Of a DNA stretch of 64,000 nt, positions 1-48,904 are shown piece by piece (the first letter of the stretch is position 1; the number at the start of each line of letters is the position of its first letter). The notes beneath the pieces were generated by a model that was not told where the DNA came from, searched no databases, and saw nothing but the letters and a program-made list of their open reading frames with translations. The position numbers were made by a program, and so were the translations under genes. This DNA comes from Mactromeris polynyma (lineage: Eukaryota > Mollusca > Bivalvia > Venerida > Mactridae), in the NCBI GenBank assembly GCA_032209605.1, contig JASFXZ010000014.1:8886912-8950911 (forward strand), written 5' to 3'.

Positions 1-206
1 GAGTTGATGTGCTAGGCGGTGGCAAGGAAGGATATAAATATCACTGTATGCTCTGTGTCAAGTGTTTTAGATCTCCCTCATTGCTCCAGAGACATATGCT
101 AGTGCATACGGGAGAAGTCCCATTTGAATGCGAAATCTGCAGAAAGAAATTCAACCAGAAGTCAAGCTTAAAAAGACATCAACTGACACACATGAGTTTT
201 ATGTGA
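1..206 (+). CDS. Alternative terminal exon E1, C2H2 zinc-finger pair (5' edge at window start)
   Basis: The frame is open from the window edge to the TGA at 204-206. It encodes two C2H2 fingers. Finger 1 is C-x2-C-x12-H-x3-H with helix residues S, S, L, R at -1, 2, 3, 6. Finger 2 has Q, S, S, R. They are joined by the near-canonical linker HTGEVPF, and only four residues follow the last His. The splice acceptor may be the 'ag' at 2-3, which would give the phase-1 entry of the other exons, but it could lie outside the window. It is the closest relative of E2: both have an RSP/PSP-LL-RH first finger and an NQKS-LKRH second finger. Sequence-specific DNA binding in the nucleus is the family role; the target is unknown. 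No canonical AATAAA was seen before E2. Confidence 0.9.
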   Translation, partial: VDVLGGGKEGYKYHCMLCVKCFRSPSLLQRHMLVHTGEVPFECEICRKKFNQKSSLKRHQLTHMSFM

Positions 207-859
207 TTTGGACATTGCTCTGTGTTCTCGATCTGTGGAATTCTTGAAATCTTGGAAATGAAACATGCATATCATTTTTTTGTTCATAACATGAATTCAC
301 ATTCGGAAAACCTCGGCCAACTACGTACAGTGCCTCGGATGTTCGTTAGGCACTACTTTTGGAAATACCATTCGATTATCATGTAAACAATATGGCGACG
401 TGAACGCTGGAGTGCTGATGAAACGGGATAACAATCACATATTTAAGATATATGAAGACTGAAATATGTTAGTATTTATCTAGAAATGACGACAATAATC
501 CATTTCTTATGTGAAGTTATTGAAGTTTAATCCGTTTTACGAGAACTATTTTTTGACCGTACAAAATGTTGAATGTTGCCACATAGTGCTCCACCTGACA
601 TACACTAGAGGATGTTCGTAGAGTAACGAAGTGGTATGGAAATATCCAAGGGCTGTTGAGAATGACAAATTCAGCGACTTTGCATTGTGCTAGTCAGTAA
701 CAATACATTCAGTGACTTGAATTTGATAACGTTGGGATGATAACTTTTGTTACTGTGTTCATGGTCAATGGTGAGTTGTGACTTTTGAAGAATTGAATAT
801 ACTCAATATAGTTATCTCATTTAATTCATCCAGCTCATCACTCCTATCAGTGACATTTG

Positions 860-1237
860 TAGAGCTTCAACAATTCGATGCGATGCATCGGAATTCGACT
901 ACGGAGCACTCGATTCACGATTCATACCCTCGTATATTCGATTCGCTTTTTTAGTTCCAGTTCGCCGAACTGTTATTTGGTACAGTTATCACGGGTTTTA
1001 GCCACGCTTAGTCATGTCGTAGTCGCTTCCCCTGTTGCTATGTTATTTACCGGAAGTAAAGTTTAGTTTTCTTTAGTCTATTAATTTTTACTTAATTTCA
1101 ATTGGCCTGAAATTAATGCAAAAGCCTTCAGATGAATGGGAATGCTGTTACATATACATATAAAAAATCAAATCGAAAAAATCGAAATCGGAGGGGAAAT
1201 AATCATATCGGTTGACAGTTGGATTGTTGAAGCTCTA
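860..1237. mobile_element. hAT-like MITE, 378 bp
   Basis: The ends are a 15-bp perfect inverted repeat: tagagcttcaacaat at 860-874 and its complement at 1223-1237. They are flanked by an 8-bp near-duplication, gacatttg (852-859) and gacatttc (1238-1245). No coding capacity. The 8-bp duplication suggests mobilisation by a hAT transposase; the assignment is an inference from duplication length. Confidence 0.7.
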
Positions 1238-2048
1238 GACATTTCTGACCTGGTTCTGTAAGTTCTAGCAAATATATGATTACTATCATGGGTTAATGAT
1301 TTTTTTTGAAAAGAAATTTACTGCCTGTGCCTTTTCAATTGTGAAAATAGGCGTGATATAAAGGCCCAAATTTGGGAAAATATTAGCATGGTTATTTTAT
1401 AAATGTTTTAATTTCCTGCTTTTGCTGAATGTGTTATTACGCTTCCCTCTCCATCTCAAAGTGCTATTTCAGGATGGTAAAAAAAGTCAGTAACTTTTAT
1501 TTTTGAGGGGGGGAAATGGAGGCTTTTTTGCCTGGGAAAACAGCCGGAATTCGGTAGGAAAATTTAACAAAAAACAATCACCGGGTTATGATACCTGAGT
1601 ATAACCTTTCTGATGCAGTACAACCTTGCCACAGTGTGAGGTTAATATCTGCTGTTGTTGAGAGGTGATTGCTTGGCGGAGGTTAAATTAGTCGTTACCT
1701 TTCACTACAGGAGAAGTGTTGACAAGAGGTGGTTGCTTAAGTGTGACCTTCTAAAGGTTTAGCTCTGTAATAGAAAAGACATTAAACTTTAAGTTAGATG
1801 TTAAGGCACTAATATACAATTTTTTTCTTTTCTTGTCTTAAACTGAGTACAAATGCTGGGTCTATTTTCTTATTTATTTAGTTGACGTCTATTCTGTTTT
1901 GGCAATGTTTGCATCCTTTTTTGTGGATAAAGACCGTAATTTCCAACAAAATTGTTTGGATTCGTTCTTTATAGCCATAAAAAAATTGGTAAGGGGTAAA
2001 AATAAGGGTTATAAAACCATGTTTTGAGGAAGACGAAAAATCAGTCAA

Positions 2049-2120
2049 TGGTGCTACTGGGAATCGAACCGGGTCTCCGGATTGCCGGTCCGTTTTGCTA
2101 ACCACTACACCACAGTGACC
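2049..2120 (-). repeat. tRNA-like SINE head
   Basis: Read on the minus strand this 72-bp segment has an A-box-like tggtgtagtggttagc and a B box ggttcgattccc, and it ends in CCA. The anticodon loop would read GGC. The acceptor stem does not pair (ggtcact against agtagca) and position 33 is C, so I read it as a tRNA-derived SINE or pseudogene, not a working tRNA. Confidence 0.6.
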
Positions 2121-2405
2121 TATAGTCATTTTCTTGTAAATTTAACTTATTAGATATTGATTAAGGTTAACTACACTTTCCCCATTGAATTTGAATGAAC
2201 AAGGTCTGACAGTATGTTATATTATTGTTGAAAGGTTTAAAACTCGACAGAAATAGGATAAAAAGTAATGCACTCTGGACGAAGTACGGGGCGAATTTTT
2301 ACATCCGCCACACGGTTAGTCAGGCAACCAGGAACAAACCTATCTTCTAGGCTGACGATAACTCTGACTTGTGTTCTTTACTTTTATTGCTTTGTTTTGT
2401 TTCAG

Positions 2406-2626
2406 TAACCGATGTGGCGCCATCGAGTGGGAGAAACAAGTGGTTCCGTATCTGTGACTTATGTAACAAGTGTTTTCCGTCTCCAGCGTTGCTACGGCGA
2501 CATATGGTCGTCCATACAGGGGAATCCCCATACCAGTGTCAATTATGTCACAAAAGATTTAATCAAAAATCTAACTTGAAAAGACATCAAATTTCTCACA
2601 TGGACAAAAGTTATTTTCAAGATTGA
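2406..2626 (+). CDS. Alternative terminal exon E2, C2H2 zinc-finger pair
   Basis: The acceptor is tttgttttgtttcag ending at 2405. The first two exon bases complete a codon begun upstream. The exon gives 73 residues: finger 1 at about 17-37 (helix -1, 2, 3, 6 = S, A, L, R), linker HTGESPY, finger 2 at 45-65 (Q, S, N, R), then MDKSYFQD and a TGA at 2624-2626. It is a clear paralogue of E1, and the first-finger motif PSP also appears in E16. AATAAA signals at 3102-3107 and 3171-3176 fit a terminal exon. The minus-strand ORF across it is a shadow. Confidence 0.95.
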
Positions 2627-3101
2627 AAGTCCTCCATTGGGGTATTCAGTTCCTGTTGGAGACTTGGATCGGTTACATAGTTGGTTCCTACGCCAATTGC
2701 AGAGCTAAATGACGCAAGTCTGTGTTGTGGTGTCCTAATAAACCTTGTTATACTGAACGGAAGAATTTGTGAACAGATGGAAACTGGAATATAGTTCAAA
2801 TTTCTCAACATTATTGTGAACATCTTCAGACCTTGCAATAAGTACACATTCAGGATCTTTTGTGTAGATATTTTTAGATACTCTTAGTGCTTAATTGTGT
2901 TCAAACTTGGATCTTCGCGATCTGACATACCGGTACACATTGTACTGTTCTCCTATCTTGACCTGTGTTCTACATGAAATCATCATTAACATGCCAATGT
3001 TTATTGAAAGTATTATGTGACATTTTTCTTGATTTCATTTGCTTCAGAAAATATTTCTCAAAGTTGATGTTGAAAATTGTTGAACAGCTTGAACTTTGTA
3101 A

Positions 3102-3107
3102 AATAAA
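3102..3107 (+). promoter_or_regulatory. Candidate poly(A) signal for E2
   Basis: AATAAA about 480 bp past the E2 stop, with a second at 3171-3176. Both lie before the MITE at 3256. Confidence 0.5.
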
Positions 3108-3255
3108 AATGGTGCGCAATGCACTTCTATACGTATAAATTTGATTGAAAATAATTCATGCAATTGAAAAAATAAAGATGTAAAATAATCAGGTATTGTT
3201 GCCACTCTTTATGATGACGACTATAGTGTTGATATATTTGATTATTACTTTATAC

Positions 3256-3711
3256 TAGGGTTGTCAATAAATGGCAATTTTGGTATTCGAAAATTCGGTC
3301 AACCTTCCAAACGAATATTCGAATATTCAACCTTCTTATTTAATAAAAATACATTTGACATTCGAAGTTTACTTTATGCTTTTCATTTTTGTGTTTTAAA
3401 CTGATCACTCGAGTTTGTAAAAATCCCCGCGATTACCAATAATTTCAGGGCCTAAGTGTCATCACCAGAGTGTTATATCTCTCTTGCCCCCAAATATACA
3501 ACATGACATGCCGATTAACACCTGTAGATATTATTGTCAGACGTAAAATGTCATTAAATGCGTTAATGCCTATCATTGAATTTTAATACACATGTATTCA
3601 GCTTTTATATTGAAAACATATATATTTTATCGAATATTCGAATGCCGAATCAGTATTCAAATATTCGGACGTTCGATCAATCGAATATCCGAATATTCGT
3701 TGTCATCCCTT
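3256..3711 (-). mobile_element. hAT-like MITE, 456 bp, family shared with 22977 and 25477
   Basis: The ends read tagggttgtcaa and ttgtcatccctt. The flanks are ctttatac (3248-3255) and ctgtatac (3712-3719), an 8-bp duplication with one mismatch. The inside carries many 'gaatattcg' motifs near the ends. The middle (around 3400-3600) is the reverse complement of the elements at 22977-23290 and 25477-25907. The ends resemble those of the hAT element at 54546 (taaggatgtcaacga), so it may be a non-autonomous relative. Confidence 0.75.
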
Positions 3712-3884
3712 CTGTATACTAATGCTCTGAACATCCATAGAAAGATATTTGTTCGTGGTACTCTCGCCGAACTACCGTACAAACTCCTCTCAGCGATTTA
3801 ACGGGGATTTTAATTTTTTTCTTTAACCAAAATTTGTTCAATTTTGATGTAATGGAATTGTAAACAAACACAGTTTTATAAGTT

Positions 3885-4200
3885 TCAATAGAGAAAAAAT
3901 AAATAACTAAATTTTGTTAAAAAAAAATTGTGATGGCCGTCGTTGGTGTAAAAGGGAAGTAACCTCTGTGGGAAGTTGGACCGAATCACTGAAATCGGTC
4001 TCGCATAAAATTTCTTCTGAATGTTGAATTTAAGCTTGTGTAAGAATTGGACTAAGGCCGTCCTTAAAAATTGTTTGTTTGCCATAACCTTACCGTGCAA
4101 AACTTTGGCAGGTAATTAAATAATTTTTATTCAAGTAATTTTTACTGTCATGAAAATTTCAACAATTCATATGCATCCGAAAAAAATTCTCTTCCCAGAC
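3885..4200. other. Spacer with a fragment of the 'ttgtttgtttggcat' repeat
   Basis: No exon was seen. The stretch around 4060-4095 (aaattgtttgtttgccataacc) matches the ends of the inverted-repeat elements at 48906-49066 and 60882-61083. Confidence 0.4.
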
Positions 4201-4376
4201 GCCTCAATTTTTTTTGTGTAGGGGCCATTTTCAAAAGTAGGTCAGGTTATGACAGTCGAACAATACTTAAAGGATTGCCTTACGTTGTGTTTGATAAACT
4301 GAAGGAGAAGCAGCCGTAAAATTGTACCAAGGTTCCATAGCTTTGACAATTTAAAAATATTTTTTCATAGTAAATC

Positions 4377-4450
4377 GAGGGTTCAGTGCAAGACTGTACT
4401 AACTTCTATATAAATATATAGGAGTTAGGATAGTATTGCGCTGAACCCTT
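4377..4450. repeat. Fold-back hairpin element HP1 (class I)
   Basis: Two arms of about 33 bp, gagggttcagtgcaagac... and ...gcgctgaaccctt, surround an 8-bp loop ataaatat. It lies about 55 bp upstream of the E3 acceptor. One of six related hairpins in the window. Confidence 0.85.
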
Positions 4451-4505
4451 GAAATGGTAGTATATAGATAGCAATAGTTGTATATTGAAAAGTTTTCTAT
4501 TTCAG

Positions 4506-4765
4506 ACGTTGGTCAAATACTCAGGCGTATTGGCGATGTGAAGAATTGTTCCGGCGATGATCTCCCCCTGACGATGCATAGTTGCAAGCTGTGCGGAAAA
4601 GTATTCGGGCACATATCCTGGCTGAAACGACACATGATGAGTCATTCTGGCGAACGACCATTCAAATGTAACTTATGTGGAAAGGGGTTTGGTCTAAAAG
4701 GGAACTATAAAACTCACATGGCGACACATTTGGATATGTTTGAGAGCAAACAGAATATGGGGTGA
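4506..4765 (+). CDS. Alternative terminal exon E3, C2H2 zinc-finger pair
   Basis: The acceptor is ttttctatttcag ending at 4505, entry phase 1. The exon gives 86 residues with a 26-residue acidic leader, finger 1 at about 27-47 (helix H, S, W, R), linker HSGERPF, finger 2 at 55-75 (L, G, N, T, with Tyr in place of the usual Leu at helix position 4), and an 11-residue tail to TGA at 4763-4765. Finger 2 is of the 'LKGN' type shared with E4-E7. AATAAA at 5064-5069 gives a plausible 3' end about 300 bp downstream; another AATAAA is near 6447. Confidence 0.95.
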
Positions 4766-5063
4766 TTAATATGTGATTATTTGAATTAAGATAAAACGCA
4801 AGTTATCGTAAGATTGGAACCATTATCACATGAAATGATGTTGAAAGTGAAAATGTAAATGTGAAATGTGACTGTACAGTCGGCGCCAATCGAACTTGTG
4901 AATGTGATTTATATGGGACTGAATCTTTGTATTGAGGAAAAGGTTACAGTGTTTTTGGATGCGGACTTGACAGTGTGATTTTGGGAGTCAATTTCTATAT
5001 AGCAGGAGGTGAGAATCATCCTCCTTGCAGACAATTTTCGCTTTTTTGGACAAACAAATTAGC

Positions 5064-5069
5064 AATAAA
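5064..5069 (+). promoter_or_regulatory. Candidate poly(A) signal for E3
   Basis: AATAAA about 300 bp after the E3 stop, ahead of the first interspersed repeat. Confidence 0.5.
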
Positions 5070-5237
5070 AGTTCTCATTCGGATATATACCCTTGGGTAA
5101 TTTTGTCTGTGAGTTGTTTCCACTGATTTCTGAAGACTTCCTCAATTTTTGCCTAAGAGCAATCTTCCCCCTGATAGAAACATGTTCACTGCACTGTTAC
5201 AGGTAGCTTGGAATATGTTCATTTCATTGGAATCTTT

Positions 5238-5460
5238 TTATGCCCCCCTTCGAAGAAGAGAGGGCATATTGGTTTGCACATGTCGGTCGGTCTGTCCGTC
5301 TTTAACCTTTTCGTTTCTGATCAATTACTCAAGAACCCCTTGACCTATCATCCTCAAACTTGGTCCACACATTTATCTTGGGTAGCAGAGGAACCCCATT
5401 GATTTTGGGGTCAAAGGTCAAGGTCACAGGGGGGCATAATGTTTTACAAACATCTCTTGT
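5238..5460 (+). mobile_element. Bivalve interspersed repeat 'tatgccccc...gggggcata'
   Basis: The start tatgccccccttcgaag and the end caggggggcataatg are roughly inverted. The interior holds gcacatgtcggtcggtctgtccgtc-like and caaaggtcaaggtcac segments. A second copy in the same orientation is at 17477-17712. Repeats of this kind are abundant in bivalve genomes. The two ORFs here are fortuitous. Confidence 0.75.
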
Positions 5461-5516
5461 TATGGTACACTTTACTTGATATTTTGGCAGGTCAGAAAGT
5501 TCACAACTGGTGAATT

Positions 5517-5585
5517 TACGTGTGGAGGCACTGTCTTGTGTATGTGGCGTTCCCTGTAGTTACGTATTCTCTCTCTTTTTTTAGA
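5517..5585 (+). repeat. Repeat shared with 34850-34915
   Basis: This segment (gaggcactgtcttgtgtatgtgg... to ...ctctctctttt) recurs downstream of E13 with a few substitutions. It is either an interspersed repeat or shared 3' sequence from an old exon duplication. Confidence 0.5.
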
Positions 5586-5814
5586 CATTTTACAAGCAGA
5601 CGTGTCGGGGAATTGCCACGATGAGTAGTATTAAAAGAATATAAGAAACATTCTTTTGTTGTCAAGGAAAATTTCACTGGTCAATAATTTCATGACTGCC
5701 GGAATTCATGATACAGTAGTATTCAACTTTATATAATTCATGTTGGAAATATTTCTTGTGTAGATAATCTTGTACTCAGGGACCATCCATTTTTATTATT
5801 ACTCTGAATATTAA

Positions 5815-5953
5815 CGGTCGGACCTCGTTCAAAGGGTCTGAAATTTTAGTTGGAATAATTCGAATAGCCATTTCAATGCGATGTTCCGATATTGATATTT
5901 ATTTAAATGAGTATGCAGGTAGAAGGTTGTCATATAAACGAGGTCTGTCTGTA
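5815..5953. mobile_element. MITE-like repeat 'cggacctcgttc...aggtctgtctgta'
   Basis: A short, internally diverged copy of a family also at 31441-31643 and 34262-34443. Its ends resemble inverted 'cagac(c)tcg' termini. No coding content. Confidence 0.5.
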
Positions 5954-7555: not shown

Positions 7556-7803
7556 ATTCTGACCTGTTTCAGTCTGTATACCTAGACGGCAGCTCTACAA
7601 GCGCCGAGGCTCATCATGTGTGTAAACTTTGTGGTAAAGGCTTCAAGCTCTCTGGCAATCTCAAACAACACATGGTCATTCACTCTGGAGAGAAGCCTTT
7701 TGATTGTAAACTGTGTGGGAAGAGTTTTAATTTGAAAGGAAATTTAAAGAAACATATGGCTGTCCATTATATAAAACATGACCAGTATCCTTCATTACAG
7801 TGA
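7556..7803 (+). CDS. Alternative terminal exon E4, C2H2 zinc-finger pair
   Basis: The acceptor is tttttttactatttcag ending at 7555, phase 1. The exon gives 82 residues: a 22-residue leader, finger 1 at about 23-43 (helix L, G, N, Q), linker HSGEKPF, finger 2 at 51-71 (L, G, N, K), an 11-residue tail and TGA at 7801-7803. Here both fingers are of the 'GNLK' type, so they probably read similar triplets; in its neighbours only finger 2 keeps this motif. A MITE starts 8 bp after the stop. The nearest AATAAA is at 9705-9710, beyond a large minisatellite. Confidence 0.95.
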
Positions 7804-7810
7804 TATGTGT

Positions 7811-8145: not shown

Positions 8146-8739
8146 GTGAAATTACCTACTATAGCTAGCTGTCGTGCAACCTTACACCTTGTGGAAAGAA
8201 AGCAAGACATTTTTAGCTTGTGTGTTGTGAAAAAACATGCGTCCACAGAAATGGTGAATATTGCGTTTAACATACTGATAGTTTCTGAGAAAGTTTAAGA
8301 CTTTGATGATAATGTTATCCACAGGTAGTGTCTGCATTCACTTCGGGTGCTCTTGTTCACAGTTAATTTTGTAAAGTGGTGAATATCTTCATATCTTAGT
8401 CATGTTGGCACTTATGTGATTTCAAGACTTATTGACTTAGGGTCGCGAAGGGAAACTACATTTTTAATGTCGGCCTTATCCTGTCAATAGTTGCATGTAT
8501 AGTGAAACCTCAATGATACGACCACCATTGGGTTCTGAATACAGTCCGTCATAGTCGTGAGGTTGTCGATATCTGATTATTATTTTGAAATAGGAAGAAA
8601 ATGAAAAACTGGTCGAAAAACGTTTTGTGTCTTTATTTTTAGATGGCCTTTCAATGACGTGTTACTGTGTTAGAAATATGAAATTTAAACAAGGTATTCA
8701 ATTCAATCTCATTTGTCATTTTACTTGTTTTGGTATGTT

Positions 8740-9690
8740 TGAACTGTTCTTTGAGTATCATAATTATAGACAATGCGTATGTTTTGATATGTATGAACTG
8801 TTCTTTGAGTATTGTATAGACAATGCGTATGTTTTGATATGTCTGAACTGTTCTTTGAGTATCATATAGACAATGCGTATGTTTTGATATGTATGAACTG
8901 TTCTTTGAGTATTGTATAGACAATGCGTATGTTTTGATATGTCTGAACTGTTCTTTGAGTATCATATAGACAATGCGTATGTTTTGATATGTATGAACTG
9001 TTCTTTGGGTATTGTATAGACAATGCGTATGTTTTGATATGTATGAAATGTTCTTTGAGTATCATATAGACAATGTGTATGTTTTGATATGTATGAACTG
9101 TTCTTTGAGTATTGTATAGACAATGCGTATGTTTTGATATGTCTGAACTGTTCTTTGAGTATTGTATAGACAATGCGTATGTTTTGATATGTCTGAACTG
9201 TTCTTTGAGTATTGTATAGACAATGCGTATGTTTTGATATGTCTGAACTGTTCTTTGAGTATCATATAGACAATGCGTATGTTTTGATATGTATGAACTG
9301 TTCTTTGAGTATTGTATAGACAATGCGTATGTTTTGATATGTATGAACTGTTCTTTGAGTATCATATAGACAATGCGTATGTTTTGATATGTATGAACTG
9401 TTCTTTGAGTATCATATAGACAATGCGTATGTTTTGATATGTATGAACTGTTCTTTGAGTATTGTATAGACAATGCGTATGTTTTGGTATGTTTGAACTG
9501 TTCTTTGAGTATTGTATAGACAATGCGTATGTTTTGATATGTATGAACTGTTCTTTGAGTATCGTATAGACAATGCGTATGTTTTGATATGTATGAACTG
9601 TTCTTTGAGTTTCGTATAGACAATGTGTATGTTTTGGTATGTATGAACTGTTCTTTGAGTTTCGTTAAGACAATGTGTATGTTTTGGAAT
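8740..9690 (+). repeat. 50-bp minisatellite, about 19 copies
   Basis: The unit caatgcgtatgttttgatat... recurs every 50 bp. Two variants (gtatgaactg...attgtataga and gtctgaactg...atcatataga) partly alternate, suggesting a 100-bp higher-order repeat. The long minus-strand ORFs here are repeat artefacts. Confidence 0.95.
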
Positions 9691-10875: not shown

Positions 10876-11114
10876 ACTTGGATATTTTGGGAGAATTCTG
10901 CAGAAATGATGGTAGAAATCTGACTCCTGCTAGACGTCATGTTTGTCATATCTGCGGCAAGGAATTCAGACAATACAAGGGACTATGGCAACACAAGAAA
11001 AGTCACGGAGAAAAAACTTACGAATGCGCTGTTTGCGGCAAACGTTTCAACTTGAAAGGAAATCTAACGAAACATTTGGTGACACATTACAGTGATCCTT
11101 TGAAGCACTTATAA
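10876..11114 (+). CDS. Alternative terminal exon E5, C2H2 zinc-finger pair with short linker
   Basis: The acceptor is taatcatttcag ending at 10875, phase 1. The exon gives 79 residues: a 23-residue leader, finger 1 at about 24-44 (helix Q, K, G, Q), finger 2 at 51-71 (L, G, N, K), tail YSDPLKHL and TAA at 11112-11114. The linker is HGEKTY, one residue shorter than HTGEKPY and lacking the usual Pro, which should alter the spacing between fingers on DNA. Finger 1 shares 'GLWQH' with E6. AATAAA lies at 11444-11449. Confidence 0.94.
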
Positions 11115-13431: not shown

Positions 13432-13673
13432 GTGATATTTATGGTGACTTTCCGATGCATTCCGTCTTGGACGCTCAGTCTTTCAAGGATACCAGCATGT
13501 TCGAAAATGATTGCAAAGTGTGCGGTAAAAGATTTCGCTCCAGGGCCGGTTTATGGCAGCATAAAATTATTCATACAGGAGAGAAACCGTATGAGTGCAA
13601 AACGTGCGGAAAATGCTTCAACCTAAGGGGAAACTGGAAAAGACATATGGTCACTCATTTTAACCCGTGTTAA
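13432..13673 (+). CDS. Alternative terminal exon E6, C2H2 zinc-finger pair
   Basis: The acceptor is ttattttactttgcag ending at 13431, phase 1. Starting at the ATG at 13455 would lose the splice-compatible leader, so I start at the acceptor. The exon gives 80 residues: a 27-residue leader, finger 1 at about 28-48 (helix S, A, G, Q), linker HTGEKPY, finger 2 at 56-76 (L, G, N, R, with Trp at helix position 4), tail FNPC and TAA at 13671-13673. The longer overlapping ORF from 13243 in another frame is a shadow. AATAAA lies at 15041-15046, just after the 34-bp minisatellite. Confidence 0.95.
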
Positions 13674-14127: not shown

Positions 14128-14975
14128 TGCATTTGGTGCCCTTTTAACAGTGTTTAATGTATTTGTGACATGAGTATGTAACAGTGTTTAATGTATTTGT
14201 GACATGAGTATGTAACAGTTTTAAAAGTATTTGTGACATGAGTGTGTAACAGTGTTAAAAGTATTTGTGACATGAGTATGTAACAGTTTTAAAAGTATTT
14301 GTGACATGAGTATGTAATAGTTTTAAAAGTATTTGTGACATGAGTATGTAACAGTTTTAAAAGTATTTGTGACATGAGTATGTAATAGTTTTAAAAGTAT
14401 TTGTGACATGAGTATGTAACAGTTTTAAAAGTATTTGTGACATGAGTATGTAATAGTTTTAAAAGTATTTGTGACATGAGTATGTAATAGTTTTAAAAGT
14501 ATTTGTGACATGAGTATGTAACAGTTTTAAAAGTATTTGTGACATGAGTATGTAATAGTTTTAAAAGTATTTGTGACATGAGTATGTAACAGTTTTAAAA
14601 GTATTTGTGACATGAGTATGTAATAGTTTTAAAAGTATTTGTGACATGAGTATGTAATAGTTTTAAAAGTATTTGTGACATGAGTATGTAACAGTATAGT
14701 ATTGGTGACATGAGTATGTAACAGTTTTAAAAGTATTTGTGACATGAGTATGTAACAGTGTTAAAAGTATTTGTGACATGAGTATGTAACAGTGTTTAAA
14801 GTATTTGTGACATGAGTATGTAACAGTGTTTAATGTATTTGTGACATGAGTATGTAACAGTGTTAAAAGTATTTGTGACATGAGTATGTAACAGTGTTAA
14901 AAGTATTTGTGACATGAGTATGTAACAGTGTTAAAAGTATTTGTGACATGAGTATGTAACAGTGTTTTAACGTTT
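14128..14975 (+). repeat. 34-bp minisatellite, about 24 copies
   Basis: The unit gtgacatgagtatgtaacag... has period 34, with 'taatag/taacag' and 'gtttaatgt/ttttaaaagt' variants. It probably lies in the E6 3' untranslated region, because the next poly(A) signal follows it at 15041. Confidence 0.95.
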
Positions 14976-15877: not shown

Positions 15878-16116
15878 GCATGAACGGAGCAGCCATGTTT
15901 TCCATTGGCCAATCAGAAGTGCTCTCGCATTTGGAGTCGAAGAACCTCCATATTTGTCATCACTGTGGGAGGAGCTTCAAACATGCGTGTCGTTTGAAAC
16001 AGCATAACTTGCGGGTACACGTGGGTCTCAAACCATGGACGTGTGAATTCTGTGGGAAAACATTCAGTTTGAAAGGAAATCTAAAGCAACACATGGTGTT
16101 ACATACCAACATGTAA
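15878..16116 (+). CDS. Alternative terminal exon E7, C2H2 zinc-finger pair
   Basis: The acceptor is aatttcctgttgcag ending at 15877, phase 1. The exon gives 79 residues: a 26-residue leader, finger 1 at about 27-48 with H-x4-H spacing (helix H, C, R, Q), a divergent linker HVGLKPW, finger 2 at 56-76 (L, G, N, Q), tail TNM and TAA at 16114-16116. AATAAA lies at 16350-16355, about 235 bp downstream. Confidence 0.95.
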
Positions 16117-18628: not shown

Positions 18629-18888
18629 AAGTATGGGGGAACACTTGTACTGAAGGCATTTGGGGCTCACACAGACAAGCCAATGAAGAGACATATGAAT
18701 TCAGTTGTGATATTTGTGGGAAGAAGTTCAGACACAAGCAAGGCGTGAAGCAACATCGAATCATTCATACTGGTGAAAAACCATGGGAATGCGAATTTTG
18801 TGGTAAATCCTTCGCTCTGCGGAACAATTTTAGGAGGCATTTGGTGAGCATGCATTCAAATGTTGCCTATAAAACTGATGGATATTGA
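18629..18888 (+). CDS. Alternative terminal exon E8, C2H2 zinc-finger pair
   Basis: The acceptor is gtttttcaatttacag ending at 18628, phase 1. The exon gives 86 residues: a 26-residue leader, finger 1 at about 27-47 (helix H, Q, G, Q), linker HTGEKPW, finger 2 at 55-76 with H-x4-H spacing (L, N, N, R), a 10-residue tail and TGA at 18886-18888. The upstream part of the long ORF (from 18541) is intronic. No canonical AATAAA was seen nearby; the next is at 20273-20278 inside a repeat fragment. Confidence 0.95.
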
Positions 18889-22360: not shown

Positions 22361-22593
22361 TGCCTTTTGAAGATTGCACAATGTCAGGAACTGGTTCATC
22401 ACATTCATGTAGAATATGTGGAAGATCATTTAGAAGAAAGTTCAATCGCGACAGACACGAGAGAACCCATACCGGGGAAAAGCAGTACGAATGTCAAACG
22501 TGCTTCAAACGGTTTGCAACAAAGAGCAATTTAACAGCCCATATGATCATTCATTTAGACGTTCTTACAGCAGACATTGGAAATATTCAATGA
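22361..22593 (+). CDS. Alternative terminal exon E9, C2H2 zinc-finger pair
   Basis: The acceptor is atttttctttttcag ending at 22360, phase 1. The exon gives 77 residues: a 16-residue leader, finger 1 at about 17-37 (helix R, F, N, R; the usual Leu at helix position 4 is Arg), linker HTGEKQY, finger 2 at 45-65 (T, S, N, A), a 12-residue tail and TGA at 22591-22593. It differs from E10 at few residues, but helix position 6 of finger 1 (Arg here, Val in E10) is one of them. An AATAAA lies at 23588-23593, already in unit B. Confidence 0.95.
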
Positions 22594-24500: not shown

Positions 24501-24733
24501 TGCCTTTTGAAGATTGCACAATGTCAGGAAATGGTTCATCACATTCATGTGCAATATGTGGAAGATCATTTAGAAGAAAGTTCAATCGAGACGTACACAT
24601 GAGAACGCATACTGGGGAAAAGCCGTACGAATGTCAAACGTGCTTCAAACGGTTTGCAACAAAGAGCAATTTAAAAGCCCATACAATCATACATTTAGAC
24701 GTTCTGACAGCAGACATTGGAAACATTCAATGA
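24501..24733 (+). CDS. Alternative terminal exon E10, C2H2 zinc-finger pair (duplicate of E9)
   Basis: The acceptor and at least 100 bp of upstream sequence match E9 almost base for base. The exon gives 77 residues: finger 1 at about 17-37 (helix R, F, N, V), canonical linker HTGEKPY, finger 2 at 45-65 (T, S, N, A), the same 12-residue tail and TGA at 24731-24733. Changes against E9 include Arg to Ala within the first C-x2-C, Arg to Val at helix 6, Glu to Met between the His, and Gln to Pro in the linker. No stop or frameshift, so both copies look functional. A candidate AATAAA is at 26781-26786. Confidence 0.95.
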
Positions 24734-28789: not shown

Positions 28790-29016
28790 GTGGCTGTGAT
28801 GCATTCTACAATGAAGTGGACAGTACTGCCAATAAGTCGGGGTTTCCGTGTGAAGTGTGTGGCAAGATATTTGGCAAGAAATATAACTTGACTGTTCATA
28901 TGCGTATACATCAGGAGGATAGACCGTTTCAATGTGATGTTTGTAAGAAAGCTTTTCATACGAAGAGCAATATGAGAACTCATATGTTTACTCATATTAA
29001 CCAGAAATATCTTTGA
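28790..29016 (+). CDS. Alternative terminal exon E11, C2H2 zinc-finger pair
   Basis: The acceptor is atcttattatttcag ending at 28789, phase 1. The ORF continues upstream through the MITE, but that part is intronic. The exon gives 75 residues: a 20-residue leader, finger 1 at about 21-41 (helix K, Y, N, V), a divergent linker HQEDRPF, finger 2 at 49-69 (T, S, N, T), tail INQKYL and TGA at 29014-29016. Finger 2 groups with E9 and E10. AATAAA signals lie at 29957-29962 and 30532-30537. Confidence 0.95.
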
Positions 29017-32372: not shown

Positions 32373-32563
32373 ATTGTCTTCGAGGTAGTCAGCAACGAGT
32401 TCCATGCATTGTTTGCGGCAAGGATTTTGCGAACAAGTTCAACCTTAAAGTACATATGCAGTCGCATACCGGAGACAAGCCGTTTGAATGTCGTATTTGT
32501 TTTAAAAGATTTAATCAAAAAAGTCATCTGAAATCGCACATGATGGTGCATTTGAAAATGTGA
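32373..32563 (+). CDS. Alternative terminal exon E12, C2H2 zinc-finger pair
   Basis: The acceptor is ctgttctgtatttcag ending at 32372, phase 1. This is the shortest exon of the set: 63 residues with an 11-residue leader, finger 1 at about 12-32 (helix N, F, N, V), linker HTGDKPF, finger 2 at 40-60 (Q, S, H, S), tail LKM and TGA at 32561-32563. The first finger begins [10 protein letters not shown], identical to E13, so these neighbours are paralogues. The minus-strand ORF over it is a shadow. AATAAA at 34043-34048 lies between E12 and E13. Confidence 0.95.
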
Positions 32564-34559: not shown

Positions 34560-34753
34560 GATCTGGGACACGATACCCCTGTATTGTCTGTGGCAAGGAT
34601 TTTGCTTCAAAACAGATTCTCACACGACATGGACGGTTACATACAGGGGAACGGCCCTACAGCTGTCAGTATTGTCCAAAGACCTTTACACAGCAGGGAC
34701 ATCTTCGAAGCCATCTGGTAATGCATGCAAACAAAGATTTACTCAATCTCTAG
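34560..34753 (+). CDS. Alternative terminal exon E13, C2H2 zinc-finger pair (hidden frame)
   Basis: I found this exon by reading from the acceptor attcttcctgtttcag (ends 34559) in phase 1. Its frame has no ORF of 60 codons with a start codon. The exon gives 64 residues: a 7-residue leader, finger 1 at about 8-28 (helix S, Q, I, R), canonical linker HTGERPY, finger 2 at 36-56 (Q, G, H, S), tail ANKDLLNL and TAG at 34751-34753. All eight zinc ligands are present. It pairs with E12 by the shared [10 protein letters not shown] start. The longer ORFs over this region (34321-34785, 34446-34721) are shadows in other frames. A gtaatg inside the second finger (34726) resembles a donor, but using it would remove the last His. 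Confidence 0.93.
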
Positions 34754-41355: not shown

Positions 41356-41567
41356 ATCTACTGACAAGCACAGATGGCAGGAAAGTGTTGGAGTGCCAGT
41401 ATTGCAGTAAACTCTTTGCGACCAAACAGAAAATGCAGAGACATGTATACATTCACACAGGAGAAAAACCATTTGAGTGCAGCTACTGTGACAAAAGTTT
41501 TAACCAGAAAGAGTCCCTAAAGTCGCATATTGTGCGTTTGCATCTGAACACTGACATGAATATGTGA
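41356..41567 (+). CDS. Alternative terminal exon E14, C2H2 zinc-finger pair
   Basis: The acceptor is tttttttctgttttcag ending at 41355, phase 1. The exon gives 70 residues: leader DLLTSTDGRKVLE, finger 1 at about 14-34 (helix T, Q, K, R; Met at helix 4), linker HTGEKPF, finger 2 at 42-63 with H-x4-H spacing (Q, E, S, S), tail LNTDMNM and TGA at 41565-41567. The leader and the TKQ of finger 1 are shared with E15, so the two are paralogues. The tail and stop sequence (ctgaacactgacatgaatatg) is repeated about 40 bp downstream. AATAAA at 42347-42352. Confidence 0.95.
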
Positions 41568-42352: not shown

Positions 42353-42504
42353 GAATGGCAGTAATTATATCTTTATGTTTGTACGAGTTCTTACCTTACG
42401 CTTACACAGTCGCAACACATCCTTCATTGCATTTTCCAATACGGGGTCAGTCCGTTTTAATGTTTAAACAAAACAGCAGTTGGCTATATCTTTCGAAGAC
42501 ACAA

Positions 42505-42622: not shown

Positions 42623-42907
42623 ATAAGAGAACATTAATTAACATGATTATTGTGCAAATAGTTAGCACCCTTAGCGATTTAGCTCAGCATTGCAATATAC
42701 CGGTAACTACTGAAACGGAAACTGCAGGTTATATTGATAAATTACATTGCACTGGTATTGTAGTTTTTATGAAAAGATCAACGGAGTAGCAGGAAATGCC
42801 ACATACAAAGTGCACAGTCACATTTACCACGAGGGACGGCCCTTTCTATTATTGTATACATTTTGTAATTATTTTAAGTACTTCATTTTTCAGCTTTATC
42901 TTAACTT

Positions 42908-43049
42908 GTGTGATAGTCTAGTTGTTCGCTGTCATTAGAAAGGGTGTGAGAGTCTAGTTGTTCGCCGTCATTAGAAAGGATGTGATAGTCTAGTTATTCG
43001 CTGTCATTAGAAAGGGTGTGATAGTCTAGTTGTTCGCTGTCATTAGAAA
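42908..43049 (+). repeat. 36-bp tandem repeat, 4 copies
   Basis: The unit gatagtctagttgttcgctg plus tcattagaaagggtgt, period 36, about 240 bp upstream of the E15 acceptor. Confidence 0.93.
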
Positions 43050-43288
43050 GTTTTGGTATTAGGCAAATATGTTTCTTGTGTTGCTAAAACCATGTAAATG
43101 CGCTTAGACCACTAACTTCCCTTCGGCAAACAGAGGAAACATCGCCAACAATATATTGTCTTTATTCTCCAATAGTTACAAATCGCAGCATTCTTTTTCT
43201 GGCGATCCTCCTTTGCTTTCATTATATCGTAACAGGTCTAGTATGTTGGTAAGCCCTTGTTCTAACCCTTTTGTTGTCCTACTTTCAG

Positions 43289-43512
43289 TGAGGCTACTGA
43301 CAGGCGATGGTAAAAAAATGTGGGAATGTGGAATATGCCAGAGACAGTTTAGTACGAAACAACGAGTGCAGCGTCACTACTTGTGCCACACAGGAGAGAA
43401 ACCTTTCGTCTGTTCAGTGTGTAGTCAGAGATTTACCCAGAAACATCATATGAAAATACACGTGTTAAATATACACGGAATTAGCTTGACCCATACTGAC
43501 TTCAGTGTTTAG
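43289..43512 (+). CDS. Alternative terminal exon E15, C2H2 zinc-finger pair
   Basis: The acceptor is gttgtcctactttcag ending at 43288, phase 1. The exon gives 74 residues: leader VRLLTGDGKKMWE, finger 1 at about 14-34 (helix T, Q, R, R), linker HTGEKPF, finger 2 at 42-63 with H-x4-H spacing (Q, H, H, I), an 11-residue tail and TAG at 43510-43512. It is the sister of E14. The upstream part of the ORF from 43156 is intronic. AATAAA lies at 43679-43684, about 170 bp downstream. Confidence 0.95.
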
Positions 43513-43678
43513 GACTGTATGCGCTCGGTTGTGTGACTCTTTGTTGTGATTCAAATGTATTATTAATATGGGTAGACTGTGGTCCCGGACTGTTTTTTTA
43601 CACTCGCACGGGTACTAGTACGGGTACTAATCTAAAACAGAGACACGTTTATTGATTTGATTTTATTCAATATAACCA

Positions 43679-43684
43679 AATAAA
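43679..43684 (+). promoter_or_regulatory. Candidate poly(A) signal for E15
   Basis: AATAAA about 170 bp past the E15 stop. Confidence 0.55.
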
Positions 43685-43743
43685 TAGTGTGTAATTTGAA
43701 TTAGTTCATTTCATACAAATTTTATTATCAAAGTTGTGAAGGT

Positions 43744-43868
43744 TGTGACTATAATGAGTATAGATCTATATTGTTTAGGGTATCTGTATGGGGGAATATT
43801 TTGTAGGTTATGACTATAATGGGTATAGATCTATATTGTTTAGGGTATCTGTGTGGGGGAATATTTTG
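43744..43868 (+). repeat. 63-bp direct duplication
   Basis: 'gactataatgagtatagatc' onward to 'gggggaatatttt' occurs twice in tandem. Confidence 0.85.
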
Positions 43869-44394
43869 AAGATCTACTACAAATATGATTAATAATATTA
43901 AAGTTATACTATTGCTCATTTTTTGCTCATTTGTTTAATTAACCAAACATGAAAAATATATTTCCTATGGTTAAAACATCAATGAACATGCATTAACAAA
44001 GATTGAACTCATGATGTATTAATCCGTATTTGTTGAAGAAAGATGTTTGTATATCATAAAATCCAGGTTTTTTTTTAACAATCGGGCTATTTTACAGGTT
44101 TTGACTGTTAGTAATACGATAAAAATCGGTTTTACATTGCAATGGTTCTTAATAGAGATGTTTTAGCCAATGTAACAACAATACTGTATATAGCCAATTC
44201 AAATATTTTATGTTCAGATGAGCCAAATACATCTTGCCTTAGAATTTAGAAAAGTGTTCAGAACCTACGAAATGTTCCGCCTGCTAGTTGTTTTACGAAA
44301 TTGTAACATCTTTTCTAAAATAGATTGTGTCACGGAAATAGCATAGGTGATCCGATTGTTACCGTAGATTATTTCGGTAAATTTAATGTATCAC

Positions 44395-44640
44395 GTATTT
44401 TCGGCGCACTGCAACCGTACATGTACTAACATGGCTTTGCTATTTGCATATCCGTGTTGTGTGAACCAATCAAATCTTACGTTTACCACTAAGCCAACTT
44501 CTCTTCTACCGAACAGCATTTGTTACCTTGATGTGGATTGGTTAATCTTTCGATAAGGGGTACGTTCAACATAATCCACTGAATTACAGTAAAATTACCG
44601 AAATCAATTTCTGAAAGTAGATCTATAGTATATTTCAAGA
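44395..44640 (+). repeat. Interspersed repeat 'tttgctatttgcatat...', copy 3
   Basis: Diverged copy with 'gtgtgaaccaatcaaatct' and 'cttgatgtggattggttaat'. Confidence 0.65.
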
Positions 44641-45837
44641 TTTATCTAGTGAGTAGTGTTGTTAGTCAACCCTTTAGGTAATTTCCCGGCATTGGAATTA
44701 AGAGGATTCTTGGGTGTATACACCAGTCACGAAAGGTTGCATTGTTTTAATCAGATAAATCGGCATGTAACAAATTTATTGCCATGAATTTAAAAAAAGG
44801 CAAAATATTTTGTGATTTATTTCGAATACTGAATAAGTTTTATATCTTGTGACATGTATTATATATGCGCTACATAAAAATGTTGCAATCATGTATATAC
44901 AGAAACTGTGTTGGCAAAAATTTGATAATGCTAAAAAAAAACTAAAAAAAAACATGATTTACATAACATGTCTATCACCCCCATTGTCATGTTAATTTGT
45001 ATATATATGTATGTTATGTAATTTGTGTATTGGCCAGGGCCCGTATTCAATATACATCTTAAGATATTTCTTAAGTTTTTCCTTAAGACATATTTTTTTC
45101 CTTACGCAAGGATAACAAATATTTTATCTTAAAGTTATATTCAGTATATTACTTAAGATATTTCTTTCCTAAGATATTTTTAAGTAATAAAATCTTAGTC
45201 GTGTTCTAAATTTCTACTGCTGCCTGGACCAATGATTTCTGTAGGCTACTGTTGTTTCAACACATCTATATTCTACTCCAAACAATCATGTCCTATTATT
45301 ACTGGTGAACAGTGTGCCTGTGACACGCATATCAACATTCAATTTTGGTATTGAGCTGGGCCCGTTTTATATATATTCGTACGAAACTTCTCACAGGAAG
45401 ACGAGCAAACTTCGGTGGACAGCTGCTTAAAAGTACTGGTACAACGTAACAGAACACTGAACAGTATTCAGTTAGATATGTCGGCAGATATGCATACCCA
45501 CTAAAAGCCTATTTCTTAAAGAGGAGGTTTGCTATTTCATGTCTGATGACTAAGATGCCAATACACAGGGGCTGGTCATAAGAGGTTCGAACTTAATTAT
45601 GAAAGTACTGCAGTGGTAAGGCGCTTGATGGGGTGTTCGAACTCACGCCTTCCCCTCTACCCCTGCATGGAGCTCAACAAAACTAACGAATTCGTAGCGT
45701 CTGTATGCGTACGGAAATATTGATAAAACGCTCCTGCGATCGTAAGAACGTCGTAAGAAAATCTTACGCAAATTGTATGCGTAAGAACGTTGATAAAACG
45801 GTAGACGGACATTAGCCCCTAGGACATTTGCCCCAAT

Positions 45838-46350
45838 GCTAAAATTTGCACATGCGGACATTTGCCCCATTCGATTATTGCACATGTGGACATTTGCCCC
45901 ATTCTGATATTGCACAGGTGGACATTTGCCCCATTCTGATATTGCACATACGGACATTTGCCCCATTCTGATATTGCACAGGCGGACATTTGCCCCATTC
46001 TGATATTGCACAGGTGGACATTTGCCCCATTCTGATATTGCACATACGGACATTTGCCCCATTCTGATATTGCACAGGCGGACATTTGTCCCATTCTGAT
46101 ATTGCACAGGTGGACATTTGCCCCATTCTGATATTGCACAGGCGGACATTTGCCCCATTCTGATATTGCACATGTGGACATTTGCCCCATTCTGATATTG
46201 CACAGGTGGACATTTGCCCCATTCTGATATTGCACAGGTGGACATTTGCCCCATTCTGATATTGCACAGGTGGACATTTGCCCCATTCTGATATTGCACA
46301 TGTGGACATTTGCCCCATTCTGATATTGCACAGGCGGACATTTGCCCCTA
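45838..46350 (+). repeat. 32-bp minisatellite, left arm, about 16 copies
   Basis: The unit catttgccccattctgatat... has period 32, with variable 'gcacaggtgg', 'gcacataccg' and 'gcacatgtgg'-like ends. It is open in all three minus-strand frames, an artefact of a stop-free unit. Confidence 0.95.
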
Positions 46351-46566
46351 TATTAGACCCTTCAACATAGGAAAAAGGGAATAGGAAATATATTGAATAG
46401 ATATTTATTCCTTTATATTAATTCTATTATCTATCAAATTTTATTAAAAGTGTTCATCATTTCATCTTTTTATTTATTCTTATTTTAATAGGAATTTGTT
46501 AAAAATATTAGTTGAGCAAAACAAATTAAATATTGTTAAGGGTATAATGTCCTATGATATATGTTG

Positions 46567-47095
46567 AAAGGGGCAAATGTCCGCCTGGGCAATATCAGAA
46601 TGGGGCAAATGTCCGCATGTGCAATATCAGACTGGGGCAAATGTCCGCCTATGTAATATCAGAAAGGGGCAAATGTCCGCCTATGTAATATCAGAAAGGG
46701 GCAAATGTCCGCCTATGTAATATCAGAAAGGGGCAAATGTCCGCCTATGTAATATCAGAAAGGGGCAAATGTCCGCCTATGTAATATCAGACTGGGGCAA
46801 ATGTCCGCCTATGTAATATCAGAAAGGGGCAAATGTCCGCCTATGTAATATCAGAAAGGGGCAAATGTCCGCCTATGTAATATCAGAAAGGGGCAAATGT
46901 CCGCCTATGTAATATCAGAAAGGGGCAAATGTCCGCCTATGTAATATCAGACTGGGGCAAATGTCCGCCTATGTAATATCAGAAAGGGGCAAATGTCCGC
47001 CTATGTAATATCAGAAAGGGGCAAATGTCCGCATGTGCAATATCAGAATGGGGCAAATGTCCGCATGTGCAAATTTTTGCACTGGGGCAAATGGC
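46567..47095 (-). repeat. 32-bp minisatellite, right arm, about 16 copies, inverted
   Basis: The unit ggggcaaatgtccgcctatg... is the reverse complement type of the left arm. It is more uniform within itself, mostly 'tatgtaatatcagaaa'. The spacer between arms is about 215 bp of AT-rich sequence. Confidence 0.95.
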
Positions 47096-47989
47096 TAATG
47101 TCCTACATTCGATAAAACGGGCCCATAAATAATGATCGTGTTTTGGTGGAAATATGATATCCATTGGTTGTTGCTGAATGATCGTCTCCAAACAGTGAAA
47201 GTCTATTCCGATCAAAACTTGTATGTCATACCATTTCAATCACATTCATTGAGAAACATTTCATTAATTACAATGAAATAAGCATTTTAGTCACAAAATC
47301 AATCTCCAAACCCGCTTCGTAAATACTGACAAGCGTTTGTCAGGTAGATCGAGCAAGAATAGTCGCCCCTGACAAATGTTATACTAGGTCATCAATGGAA
47401 ATATACGTAGAACGATAAAATAACAGTCATTGTATATGCTGGAACTTCTTTTAAACAAAATACAAGCAGCAAATTGTAGATTTCGAAGATACTACAATTT
47501 TCCTTATATTTAAGATAAAAGTTAAGACTGCTAAGAGGTACCTTACAGTTAAGGAGAAAAATAAACAATATCTTAAGAAAAAAAGCTTTGTGAATACCAC
47601 TTAAGATTTTTCTTCAAATCTAAGGAAGAAATGCAGGAAAAATCTTAAATTTAATGGAAATCTTAGCATTTAAGATAAATTTTCAACTTAAGATGTATAT
47701 TGAATACGGGCCCAGAGGCCTTTTGTACAATAAACTTTGAATTGAATTGTGATTTCATGACTGATGCAATAAGTACTGATGAACTTTATTGAAACAGACT
47801 ATACTTTCTATGACTACTCTCACTACGGAGTAATTTTTATCATTTCTCCTCCGAAGTTATCTCCCCTTACAGATAGCTGAGTTACTGTAGTGTAGCATAA
47901 TCGAGTGACCAGCAATTGTAACATATATCGGCAGTTCTTTTATATTGCACAACAAATTGCAACTAATTTGCTTGCTTCAGATTGCGCCG

Positions 47990-48194
47990 TCGTAACCCGG
48001 CGATCAGGGTTCGATCCCTGGTCGCGGCAGGTCATACCCTTCCATGAAAATGTGGAGAAGTTGAAGGCTCCTTGTGGAAGGGTAAGTTAGTACTGGTTAG
48101 ATTTTAGTCCAGGAAAAACTGGTTAGATGAACCGGCCGCCGTATATAACTGAAATATCGTTGAGAAACGGCGTTAAACCCGATGAAACAAACAA
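47990..48194 (+). mobile_element. tRNA-derived SINE, 5'-truncated
   Basis: Same family as 39523-39786. It begins in the anticodon region of the head, keeps the B box gggttcgatccc and ends 'cggcgttaaacccgatgaaac'. The 13-bp flanks tcagattgcgccg (47977-47989, 48195-48207) are a perfect target duplication. Confidence 0.88.
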
Positions 48195-48671
48195 TCAGAT
48201 TGCGCCGACTCTCTTTTTTCATTTATGTATATATCACGGAATTATACCGTCATGGAATTATAGACTGACACGGGTTTTAGGCGATACCATTATTCGCACA
48301 ATATATATCAGGGTAATAATCATTTTTTCCTTCAATGCCATTTGGACCTAATTACAATCCATAGCAGTATCTTTTCACCATTGTCACGTATTAACATAAT
48401 ATAATCACAATGCTATCATCATCAGAAATCTATTAAACTTTATTTTTTATCGCGCGGTAATCTCTTCCTGTTTGTCTAAGGTTTGTCTAAGGTGAAGCGA
48501 GCTGCTGGGGGTGTGTCGAAATCGCGTTATCTGATTGGCCAATCGGTATGTCAATCAAATATCTGAGAAAGGGTCAATTTAAATATGAAGCCATCGAAAT
48601 ACCGGGAGCTATGCTCCGTTTGACAAAAACAGTATTGGTGTCATAAGAGAAACTGCTGTTGTTTATTTCAG

Positions 48672-48904
48672 GTATGGTTTCAGACTCGTCCACCTCATCG
48701 TCCTCTACAAGGTTGAAGACCCTTATCAAAGACAAGATGTGTCCAATATGCAGCAAAGTATGTCCATCGCCATCTCATTTAAAGCTACACTTGAGGACTC
48801 ACACGGGTGAAAAACCGTTCGTATGTAACATCTGTCAAGCCGCGTTCAGTAGAAAATACAGTTTAAAACAACATTCCATCACACACTATAGTCCATTTGA
48901 GTAG
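48672..48904 (+). CDS. Alternative terminal exon E16, C2H2 zinc-finger pair (last seen)
   Basis: The acceptor is ctgttgtttatttcag ending at 48671, phase 1. The exon gives 77 residues: a Ser/Thr-rich then Lys-rich leader, finger 1 at about 24-44 (helix S, S, H, L), linker HTGEKPF, finger 2 at 52-72 (R, Y, S, Q), tail YSPFE and TAG at 48902-48904. In finger 1 the usual core Phe is Cys (SKVCPSPSH), and the PSPS motif recalls E1/E2. AATAAA at 48970-48975 lies inside an inverted-repeat element; another is at 49317-49322. Confidence 0.95.

What the first reader, a model, noticed from the sequence alone, without database searches (positions are those of the whole stretch)
1..48904. Sixteen alternative 3'-terminal zinc-finger-pair exons in one molluscan locus
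Sixteen same-strand exons each encode exactly two C2H2 fingers and then stop. Because each stops before any donor, they cannot be joined in series. The simplest reading is one gene whose shared 5' part (outside the window) is spliced to one of at least 16 DNA-binding tails. Established parallel: insect lola and broad, where a BTB domain is joined to alternative C2H2 exons. I know of no described molluscan locus of this size, but I could not search.
Basis: partly seen in the sequence, partly recalled or inferred. Interest (0 to 1): 0.93.

Follow-up and report, generated by a model that had tools for sequence, protein, structure and literature searches.

The report
Bivalve gene with 17 alternative tails
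In what is very likely a bivalve genome, three front exons of one gene are followed by 17 separate end exons, each encoding its own pair of DNA-binding zinc fingers, and the gene is predicted to splice its front to one of them at a time, so that a single gene would make many different transcription factors.

Summary
Sixteen same-strand exons in the window each encode two intact C2H2 fingers and a stop. A 17th lies 1.8 kb upstream; no other finger pair was found in 200 kb upstream or 30 kb downstream. They encode an unnamed N-terminal domain; no BTB was matched. Database proteins of Mercenaria, Ruditapes, Mya and Dreissena carry identical prefixes joined to up to 12 different tails; in 117 of 117 finger-bearing ones the junction residue is one whose codon can begin with A. 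The domain matches 28 places in this genome; 137 of 151 short-frame finger pairs from two capped searches lie downstream, same strand, of 13 of them. It works like Drosophila lola but without BTB: a new variant of a known kind, by inference independently evolved. RNA of this species was not available.

The parts
1..206 (+). Tail E1 (exon begins 6 bases before the window), finger pair + stop. Parts of the same gene that lie upstream, outside the window: shared exon 1 coding part at -12217 to -12128 (contig C46 8874694-8874783, donor phase 0), shared exon 2 at -10877 to -10721 (C46 8876034-8876190, donor phase 1), shared exon 3 at -9936 to -9295 (C46 8876975-8877616, donor TACA|GTAAGTG, phase 1), tail E0 at -2107 to -1788 (position 0 = C46 8886911)
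   Evidence: E1; upstream parts:
2406..2626 (+). Tail E2, finger pair + stop
4506..4765 (+). Tail E3, finger pair + stop
7556..7803 (+). Tail E4, finger pair + stop
10876..11114 (+). Tail E5, finger pair + stop
13432..13673 (+). Tail E6, finger pair + stop
15878..16116 (+). Tail E7, finger pair + stop
18629..18888 (+). Tail E8, finger pair + stop; ortholog-like tails in Ruditapes and Mercenaria
22361..22593 (+). Tail E9, finger pair + stop; tandem duplicate of E10
24501..24733 (+). Tail E10, finger pair + stop; tandem duplicate of E9
28790..29016 (+). Tail E11, finger pair + stop
32373..32563 (+). Tail E12, finger pair + stop
34560..34753 (+). Tail E13, finger pair + stop
41356..41567 (+). Tail E14, finger pair + stop
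43289..43512 (+). Tail E15, finger pair + stop
48672..48904 (+). Tail E16, finger pair + stop; last one found

Best explanation
This locus is very likely one bivalve gene whose three shared upstream exons, ending in a phase-1 donor, are predicted to be spliced to one of 17 alternative 3'-terminal exons, each encoding one C2H2 finger pair and a stop. Shown by sequence: the exons, their phases, the intact fingers and the genome-wide pairing of the N-domain with finger-pair arrays. Supported by relatives' database proteins: one shared prefix carrying many tails. Inferred: that each mRNA uses one tail, with cleavage and polyadenylation after it; that the N-domain (about 100 residues, helical in a weak model) mediates protein-protein contact, possibly dimerisation; and that each tail, with its own set of base-contacting residues, sends the shared N-domain and linker to a different DNA site. 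The gene would thus be a one-of-17 switch of DNA-binding specificity.
For: 17 tails, 34 of 34 fingers intact, and no clear degenerate copy in 294 kb. All 17 YAG acceptors are in one phase, matching the donor TACA|GTAAGTG of shared exon 3. Relatives: in 117 of 117 held proteins with a recognisable junction and at least one finger in the tail, the junction residue is K, S, R, N, T, I or M, all of which have codons starting with A (136 of 152 held proteins have the linker motif LEITGVE; 5 without a recognisable junction and 14 without a finger in the tail were left out). Identical prefixes carry 12, 11, 10, 10, 9 and 9 different representative tails. Names in one Ruditapes prefix group run to isoform X43. 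Seven sequences on contigs of 1,211-2,102 bases span N-domain and tail (two with the tail cut short), though exons 1-3 alone cover 2.9 kb in this genome and the nearest tail lies 7 kb further; one of them shares a 298-residue prefix exactly with nine Ruditapes models. 137 of 151 short-frame finger pairs lie within 130 kb downstream on the same strand of an N-domain exon; none of the other 14 lies within 130 kb of one in another orientation. E9/E10: dN 0.060, dS 0.152. 17 of 17 tails differ in the residues at helix positions -1, 2, 3, 6 of the pair (that these contact bases is recalled).
Against: No RNA of this species was available. Database isoform models are predictions whose read support I did not see. 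GTRAG-like sites inside E8 and E11, tails with 3-4 fingers in 10 of 128 relatives and with one or none in 22, and two models that seem to chain two tails (P0026, P0120) leave room for serial joining or other ends. 14 of 151 short-frame pairs are not near an N-domain exon; 15 of 28 N-domain places drew no tail hit and 3 of the other 13 drew only one, in two searches that scored only 150 of about 1,300 candidates each. With my acceptor score E15's best AG is out of phase. The N-domain's role rests on a low-confidence model (mean pLDDT 50.7).
Confidence: 0.9

Rival explanations
1. The tails are transcribed separately from internal promoters and joined to the shared exons in trans, as reported for part of lola.
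For: Trans-splicing is reported for lola and mod(mdg4) (PMC1947980 and PMC11426971, passages seen); the rule that found tails here reaches up to 130 kb from the N-domain exon.
Against: Nothing here requires it; 137 of 151 short-frame pairs lie downstream on the same strand as an N-domain exon, which suits ordinary cis-splicing. Not testable with DNA alone.
Confidence: 0.12
2. A tandem array of 17 small independent zinc-finger genes, each with its own promoter and first exons.
For: The exons start 1.9-6.8 kb apart, room enough for promoters.
Against: One N-domain gene only in 294 kb; one acceptor phase in all 17; relatives' models share one identical prefix.
Confidence: 0.04
3. Tails are cassette exons joined in series into longer finger arrays.
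For: 10 of 128 relatives have 3-4 fingers; P0026 and P0120 look like chained tails; GTRAG sites inside E8 and E11.
Against: Every tail has an in-frame stop; 96 of 128 relatives have exactly two fingers.
Confidence: 0.04
4. A decaying duplicate cluster without function.
For: The region holds many repeats.
Against: 34 of 34 fingers intact, no clear broken tail; E9/E10 dN/dS about 0.4; exon 2 copies look constrained, median dN/dS 0.096 in the 12 of 66 pairs with usable dS.
Confidence: 0.01

Closest known systems
Drosophila lola (longitudinals lacking)
   Same: A common N-terminal region joined to one of about 20 alternative C-terminal exons, most with zinc fingers (PMC1947980, passages seen; PMC11426971 gives 17 of 20 isoforms with C2H2 fingers, passages seen).
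   Different: lola has a BTB domain of the TTK type, reported as not found outside Arthropoda, Mollusca included in the search (PMC11426971, passages seen). Here no BTB was matched, and finger pairs follow the N-domain at 13 places in one genome, at 10 of them with four or more pairs found.
Drosophila mod(mdg4)
   Same: At least 30 isoforms from one locus with variable C-terminal ends (PMC11426971, passages seen).
   Different: BTB N-terminus and mostly FLYWCH ends; trans-splicing (same passages). Here finger pairs and no BTB. In relatives a few ends differ: P0139 has precomputed Pfam matches PF03221 and PF04218 (recalled as Tc5-type and CENP-B HTH domains), P0143 and P0147 have DUF3504.
broad (Br-C) of insects
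   Same: Alternative C2H2 pair ends on a shared N-terminus (recalled).
   Different: BTB N-terminus, few ends (recalled).
KRAB-ZNF, ZAD-ZNF and similar expanded finger families
   Same: Lineage-specific expansion of C2H2 genes (PMC10547256, passages seen); a shared N-domain in each family (recalled).
   Different: There diversity comes from separate genes with long finger arrays (recalled); here largely from alternative end exons of one gene.

Membership tests
lola-type alternative-tail transcription factor gene | Shared N-terminal exons upstream of the alternative ends | tested here: met
   Exons 1-3 found 9.3-12.2 kb upstream
lola-type alternative-tail transcription factor gene | Many alternative C-terminal exons, mostly with C2H2 fingers | tested here: met
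   17 finger-pair exons ending in stops; that they are alternatives is inferred from phase and stops
lola-type alternative-tail transcription factor gene | BTB domain in the shared part | tested here: not met
   PF00651 has one listed match on contig C46, 8 Mb away (150 of 211 candidates scored genome-wide); no BTB match at E<=1 in the three + frames of the 10 kb holding exon 3 or in five full-length relatives. Exons 1 and 2 of this species were not themselves scanned by Pfam.
lola-type alternative-tail transcription factor gene | Transcripts joining the shared exons to different tails | tested here: inconclusive
   Supported in relatives by database proteins; no RNA of this species
lola-type alternative-tail transcription factor gene | Trans-splicing | not testable with these tools
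   Needs allele-resolved RNA
BTB-ZF family | BTB domain plus C2H2 fingers | tested here: not met
KRAB-ZNF / ZAD-ZNF / SCAN-ZNF families | KRAB, ZAD or SCAN domain at the N-terminus (recalled) | tested here: not met
   No such Pfam match in five relatives at E<=1
Spalt (sal) family, the name given to several relatives | Several spaced finger pairs in one protein (recalled) | tested here: not met
   One finger pair per tail here; 96 of 128 relatives have exactly two fingers

The most novel reading that the evidence does not exclude
Clam-type bivalves independently built a genome-wide lola-like system on a domain of their own: some ten to thirteen loci and about 140 or more interchangeable finger-pair tails in one genome, with the N-domain multimerising so that isoforms pair up combinatorially and read many composite DNA sites, perhaps to keep up with mobile DNA or to diversify cell identities.
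Probability: 0.3. Interest if true: 0.95.

Novelty: new variant of a known kind. Interest (0 to 1): 0.83.

Why it matters
Swapping the DNA-binding end of a transcription factor by choice of last exon is best known to me from fly loci (lola, mod(mdg4), broad). Here the same architecture appears in another phylum, on an unrelated N-domain, and finger-pair arrays follow that domain at ten or more places in one genome. That makes it a second, apparently independent test case for how one donor chooses among many competing terminal exons, and it suggests that counting genes underestimates the transcription factors of these animals. It also explains a practical nuisance: isoforms that share one prefix are named sal-like, myoneurin-like, MECOM-like and so on in public records, which may mislead expression studies.

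Tried and rejected
BTB as the shared domain: rejected. Known domain for the shared part: no convincing match in Pfam (five relatives), NCBIfam (three relatives) or, by sequence, PDB (best PDB E-value 0.18, unrelated molecules). Fold of the N-domain: AlphaFold2 on a 32-row alignment gave mean pLDDT 50.7, with helices at 10-13, 17-39 and 67-104; I ran no fold search on so weak a model. More tails: no finger pair in 30 kb downstream, 200 kb upstream (beyond E0) or the large gaps of the array; besides the pairs, the loose finger pattern gave a few isolated chance-like matches, and tblastn one marginal hit with two stops. Polyadenylation-like hexamers occur within 1.5 kb of 15 of the 16 window tails (E1 none, E0 not examined), but in AT-rich DNA I count that as no evidence. 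Shared upstream elements that could choose tails: in 400 bases before each acceptor only the E9/E10 duplicate and an E6/E11 inverted repeat turned up. Literature: searches (and 45, 75, aimed at lola-type genes) listed no bivalve or other molluscan gene of this kind, judged by titles and beginnings of abstracts; the library holds open-licence papers only. One search's first row was a wrong piece of DNA (bad coordinates) and is disregarded.
Full report
Observation. The window contains 16 + strand exons, each with two C2H2 fingers and an in-frame stop. Fetching 200 kb upstream from the window's own genome (G000 contig C46, window = 8886912-8950911) showed one further finger pair, E0, at window position -1949, and 30 kb downstream showed none. 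A tblastn of the 17 tails over the joined 294 kb (E <= 0.01) found the 17 tails and one marginal match (E 0.005) at -56296 with two stops. All 34 fingers keep their ligands. All 17 exons have a YAG acceptor that leaves two bases of a codon. With a crude acceptor score of my own the best AG had that phase in 16 of 17; E15 fails narrowly.

The shared part. An open frame of 224 codons on the + strand at -9937 ends, as an exon, in TACA|GTAAGTG, a donor that leaves one base. Two further exons lie upstream: exon 1 with the start codon and MATPDMDVIRDIPGYKVILKAIIKSQIQQL, and exon 2 with VEQLATHTDEESVILTASVSDGTLSHLGSDSGKGFLEEQEDVKSQFLGFCLK. In window numbering (position 0 = C46 8886911) they lie at -12217 to -12128, -10877 to -10721 and -9936 to -9295, and tail E0 at -2107 to -1788. 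Phases agree throughout: 0 between exons 1 and 2, 1 between exons 2 and 3, 1 between exon 3 and each of the 17 tails. The shared protein part is 296 residues by this model. Minus-strand open frames that look transporter-like (label recalled) lie upstream, and an open frame with a SERF-like Pfam match lies about 2 kb beyond the window, so the array appears complete.

Relatives. A search with exon 3 plus tail E3 found 58 proteins; one with the N-domain of a Mercenaria relative found 210, of which 120 were listed; a third, with a hand-blended N-domain and candidates limited to longer proteins, found 13. Every listed hit that carries an organism name comes from Mercenaria, Ruditapes, Mactra, Mya or Dreissena; one search also listed generic finger proteins of insects, fish and a turtle. 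Mya and Mactra are Imparidentia (the others recalled as such). From this I infer that the window comes from a bivalve of that group. Of 128 held proteins with an assigned junction, in 41 prefix groups, identical prefixes carry up to 12 different tails; 96 tails have exactly two fingers, 13 none, 9 one, 9 three, 1 four. The residue at the junction is A-codable in 117 of 117 finger-bearing proteins with a junction: the splice phase, and the A before the donor, appear conserved across these bivalves. The 14 fingerless ones were kept out of that count; at least 10 of them run straight on through the donor (SK...), one has a cut finger (P0039), two have other domains (P0139, P0143). Seven sequences on contigs of 1.2-2.1 kb, source label 'lgn', hold N-domain, linker and tail in one frame, P0037 and P0039 with the tail cut short. 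I take these as assembled transcripts because exons 1-3 alone span 2.9 kb in this genome; the label itself is not explained by the tool, and introns of those species were not seen. Another, P0006, has exons 1-3 joined but appears to run on into the intron. Tail by tail, E0-P0004 (Mercenaria), E8-P0002 (Ruditapes; P0003 of Mercenaria scores nearly the same) and E3-P0024 (unnamed source) are reciprocal best matches at 63-66% identity; seven other reciprocal pairs are at 46-58%, too low to claim orthology, and 7 of 17 tails had none.

Genome-wide. The exon-2 domain has 28 matches in this genome at E <= 0.01, the weakest at 38% identity. Two tail queries returned 149 and 150 matches, each scoring 150 of about 1,300 candidates. 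Merged (starts within 250 bases counted once) they give 206 places: 151 in short frames (200 codons or fewer) and 55 in long frames. Of the 151, 137 lie within 130 kb downstream on the same strand of one of 13 N-domain places; 10 of these 13 have four or more pairs (27, 24, 19, 14, 14, 12, 11, 5, 4, 4), three have one. None of the remaining 14 lies within 130 kb of an N-domain place in any other orientation. Of the 55 long-frame places 2 meet the rule. The same two searches recovered 14 of the 17 tails of this locus, so about 140 is a lower bound for the tails in the genome, if each such pair is a tail. Among the 12 N-domain loci held (of 28), exon 2 is open in all; exon 1 was found within 1.5 kb in 7, and the exon-3 linker in 3, of which 2 (one of them the window's own) show the A|GTAAGT donor and the third runs off the locus. 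Pairwise dN/dS of exon 2 had a median of 0.096 in the 12 of 66 pairs whose dS could be used; most pairs are saturated.

How it likely works. The sequence shows one donor facing 17 equivalent acceptors, each exon closed by a stop. The simplest reading is a choice of one terminal exon per mRNA, with cleavage and polyadenylation behind it (inferred). Each tail presents a different set of residues at helix positions -1, 2, 3, 6: 17 of 17 combinations differ (the role of these positions is recalled). E9 and E10 are a tandem duplicate, about 90% identical over 1 kb of DNA, with dN 0.060 and dS 0.152; one of their seven amino-acid differences is at helix position 6 of finger 1. So tails would multiply by local duplication and then diverge (inferred). 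The N-domain has no convincing match in Pfam, NCBIfam or, by sequence, PDB; the model is weak but helical. A dimerisation role is a guess by analogy with BTB.

Comparison. lola has a common BTB region joined to about 20 alternative ends by cis- and trans-splicing (PMC1947980, passages seen). Its TTK-type BTB was reported as not found outside Arthropoda, Mollusca included (PMC11426971, passages seen). With no BTB matched here, this is not filed as a member of that family but works like it; an independent origin follows (inference). PMC10547256 (three passages seen) mentions large numbers of finger genes in some molluscs; its text holds no 'bivalv', 'alternative splic' or 'isoform'.

Limits. No RNA of this species. 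Species unknown; its nearest hit to the shared part is Mactra antiquata at 52% over 94% of the query.

Noticed in passing
49639-58853: A 9.2 kb array of a 32-bp unit (about 286 copies, 82% matches), within which an open frame at 54864-55265 matches the hAT transposase dimerisation domain.
   Followed up: partly
P0139, P0143, P0146, P0147 (relatives): The same N-domain is joined in other bivalve records to non-finger ends: P0139 has precomputed Pfam matches PF03221 and PF04218 (recalled as Tc5-type and CENP-B HTH), P0143 and P0147 have DUF3504 above cut-off and P0146 below it, as if domains of mobile elements had also been recruited as tails.
   Followed up: partly
window upstream of E6 (13432) and E11 (28790): About 198 bases shared at 95% identity in opposite orientation just upstream of two tails, possibly a mobile element.
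   Followed up: no
18629-18888 and 28790-29016: GTRAG-like donor sites inside the coding parts of E8 and E11.
   Followed up: no
P0150 and P0142 (relatives): N-domain proteins that seem to have long finger arrays instead of one pair: P0150 has seven fingers by pattern, P0142 is an 892-residue Ruditapes 'zinc finger protein 84-like' with many finger families listed; possibly the older form of the family.
   Followed up: no
about -169000 to -144000 relative to the window: Repeated blocks about 13-14 kb apart holding similar open frames that look B-box- and C-type-lectin-like (labels recalled).
   Followed up: no
8726-9686, 14145-14963, 45822-47064: Several minisatellites between the tails, periods 50, 34 and 32.
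   Followed up: no
public records of Mercenaria, Ruditapes, Mya, Dreissena: Proteins with one identical prefix carry unrelated names (for example sal-like, myoneurin-like, MECOM-like in one Mercenaria group), apparently chosen by the tail.
   Followed up: yes
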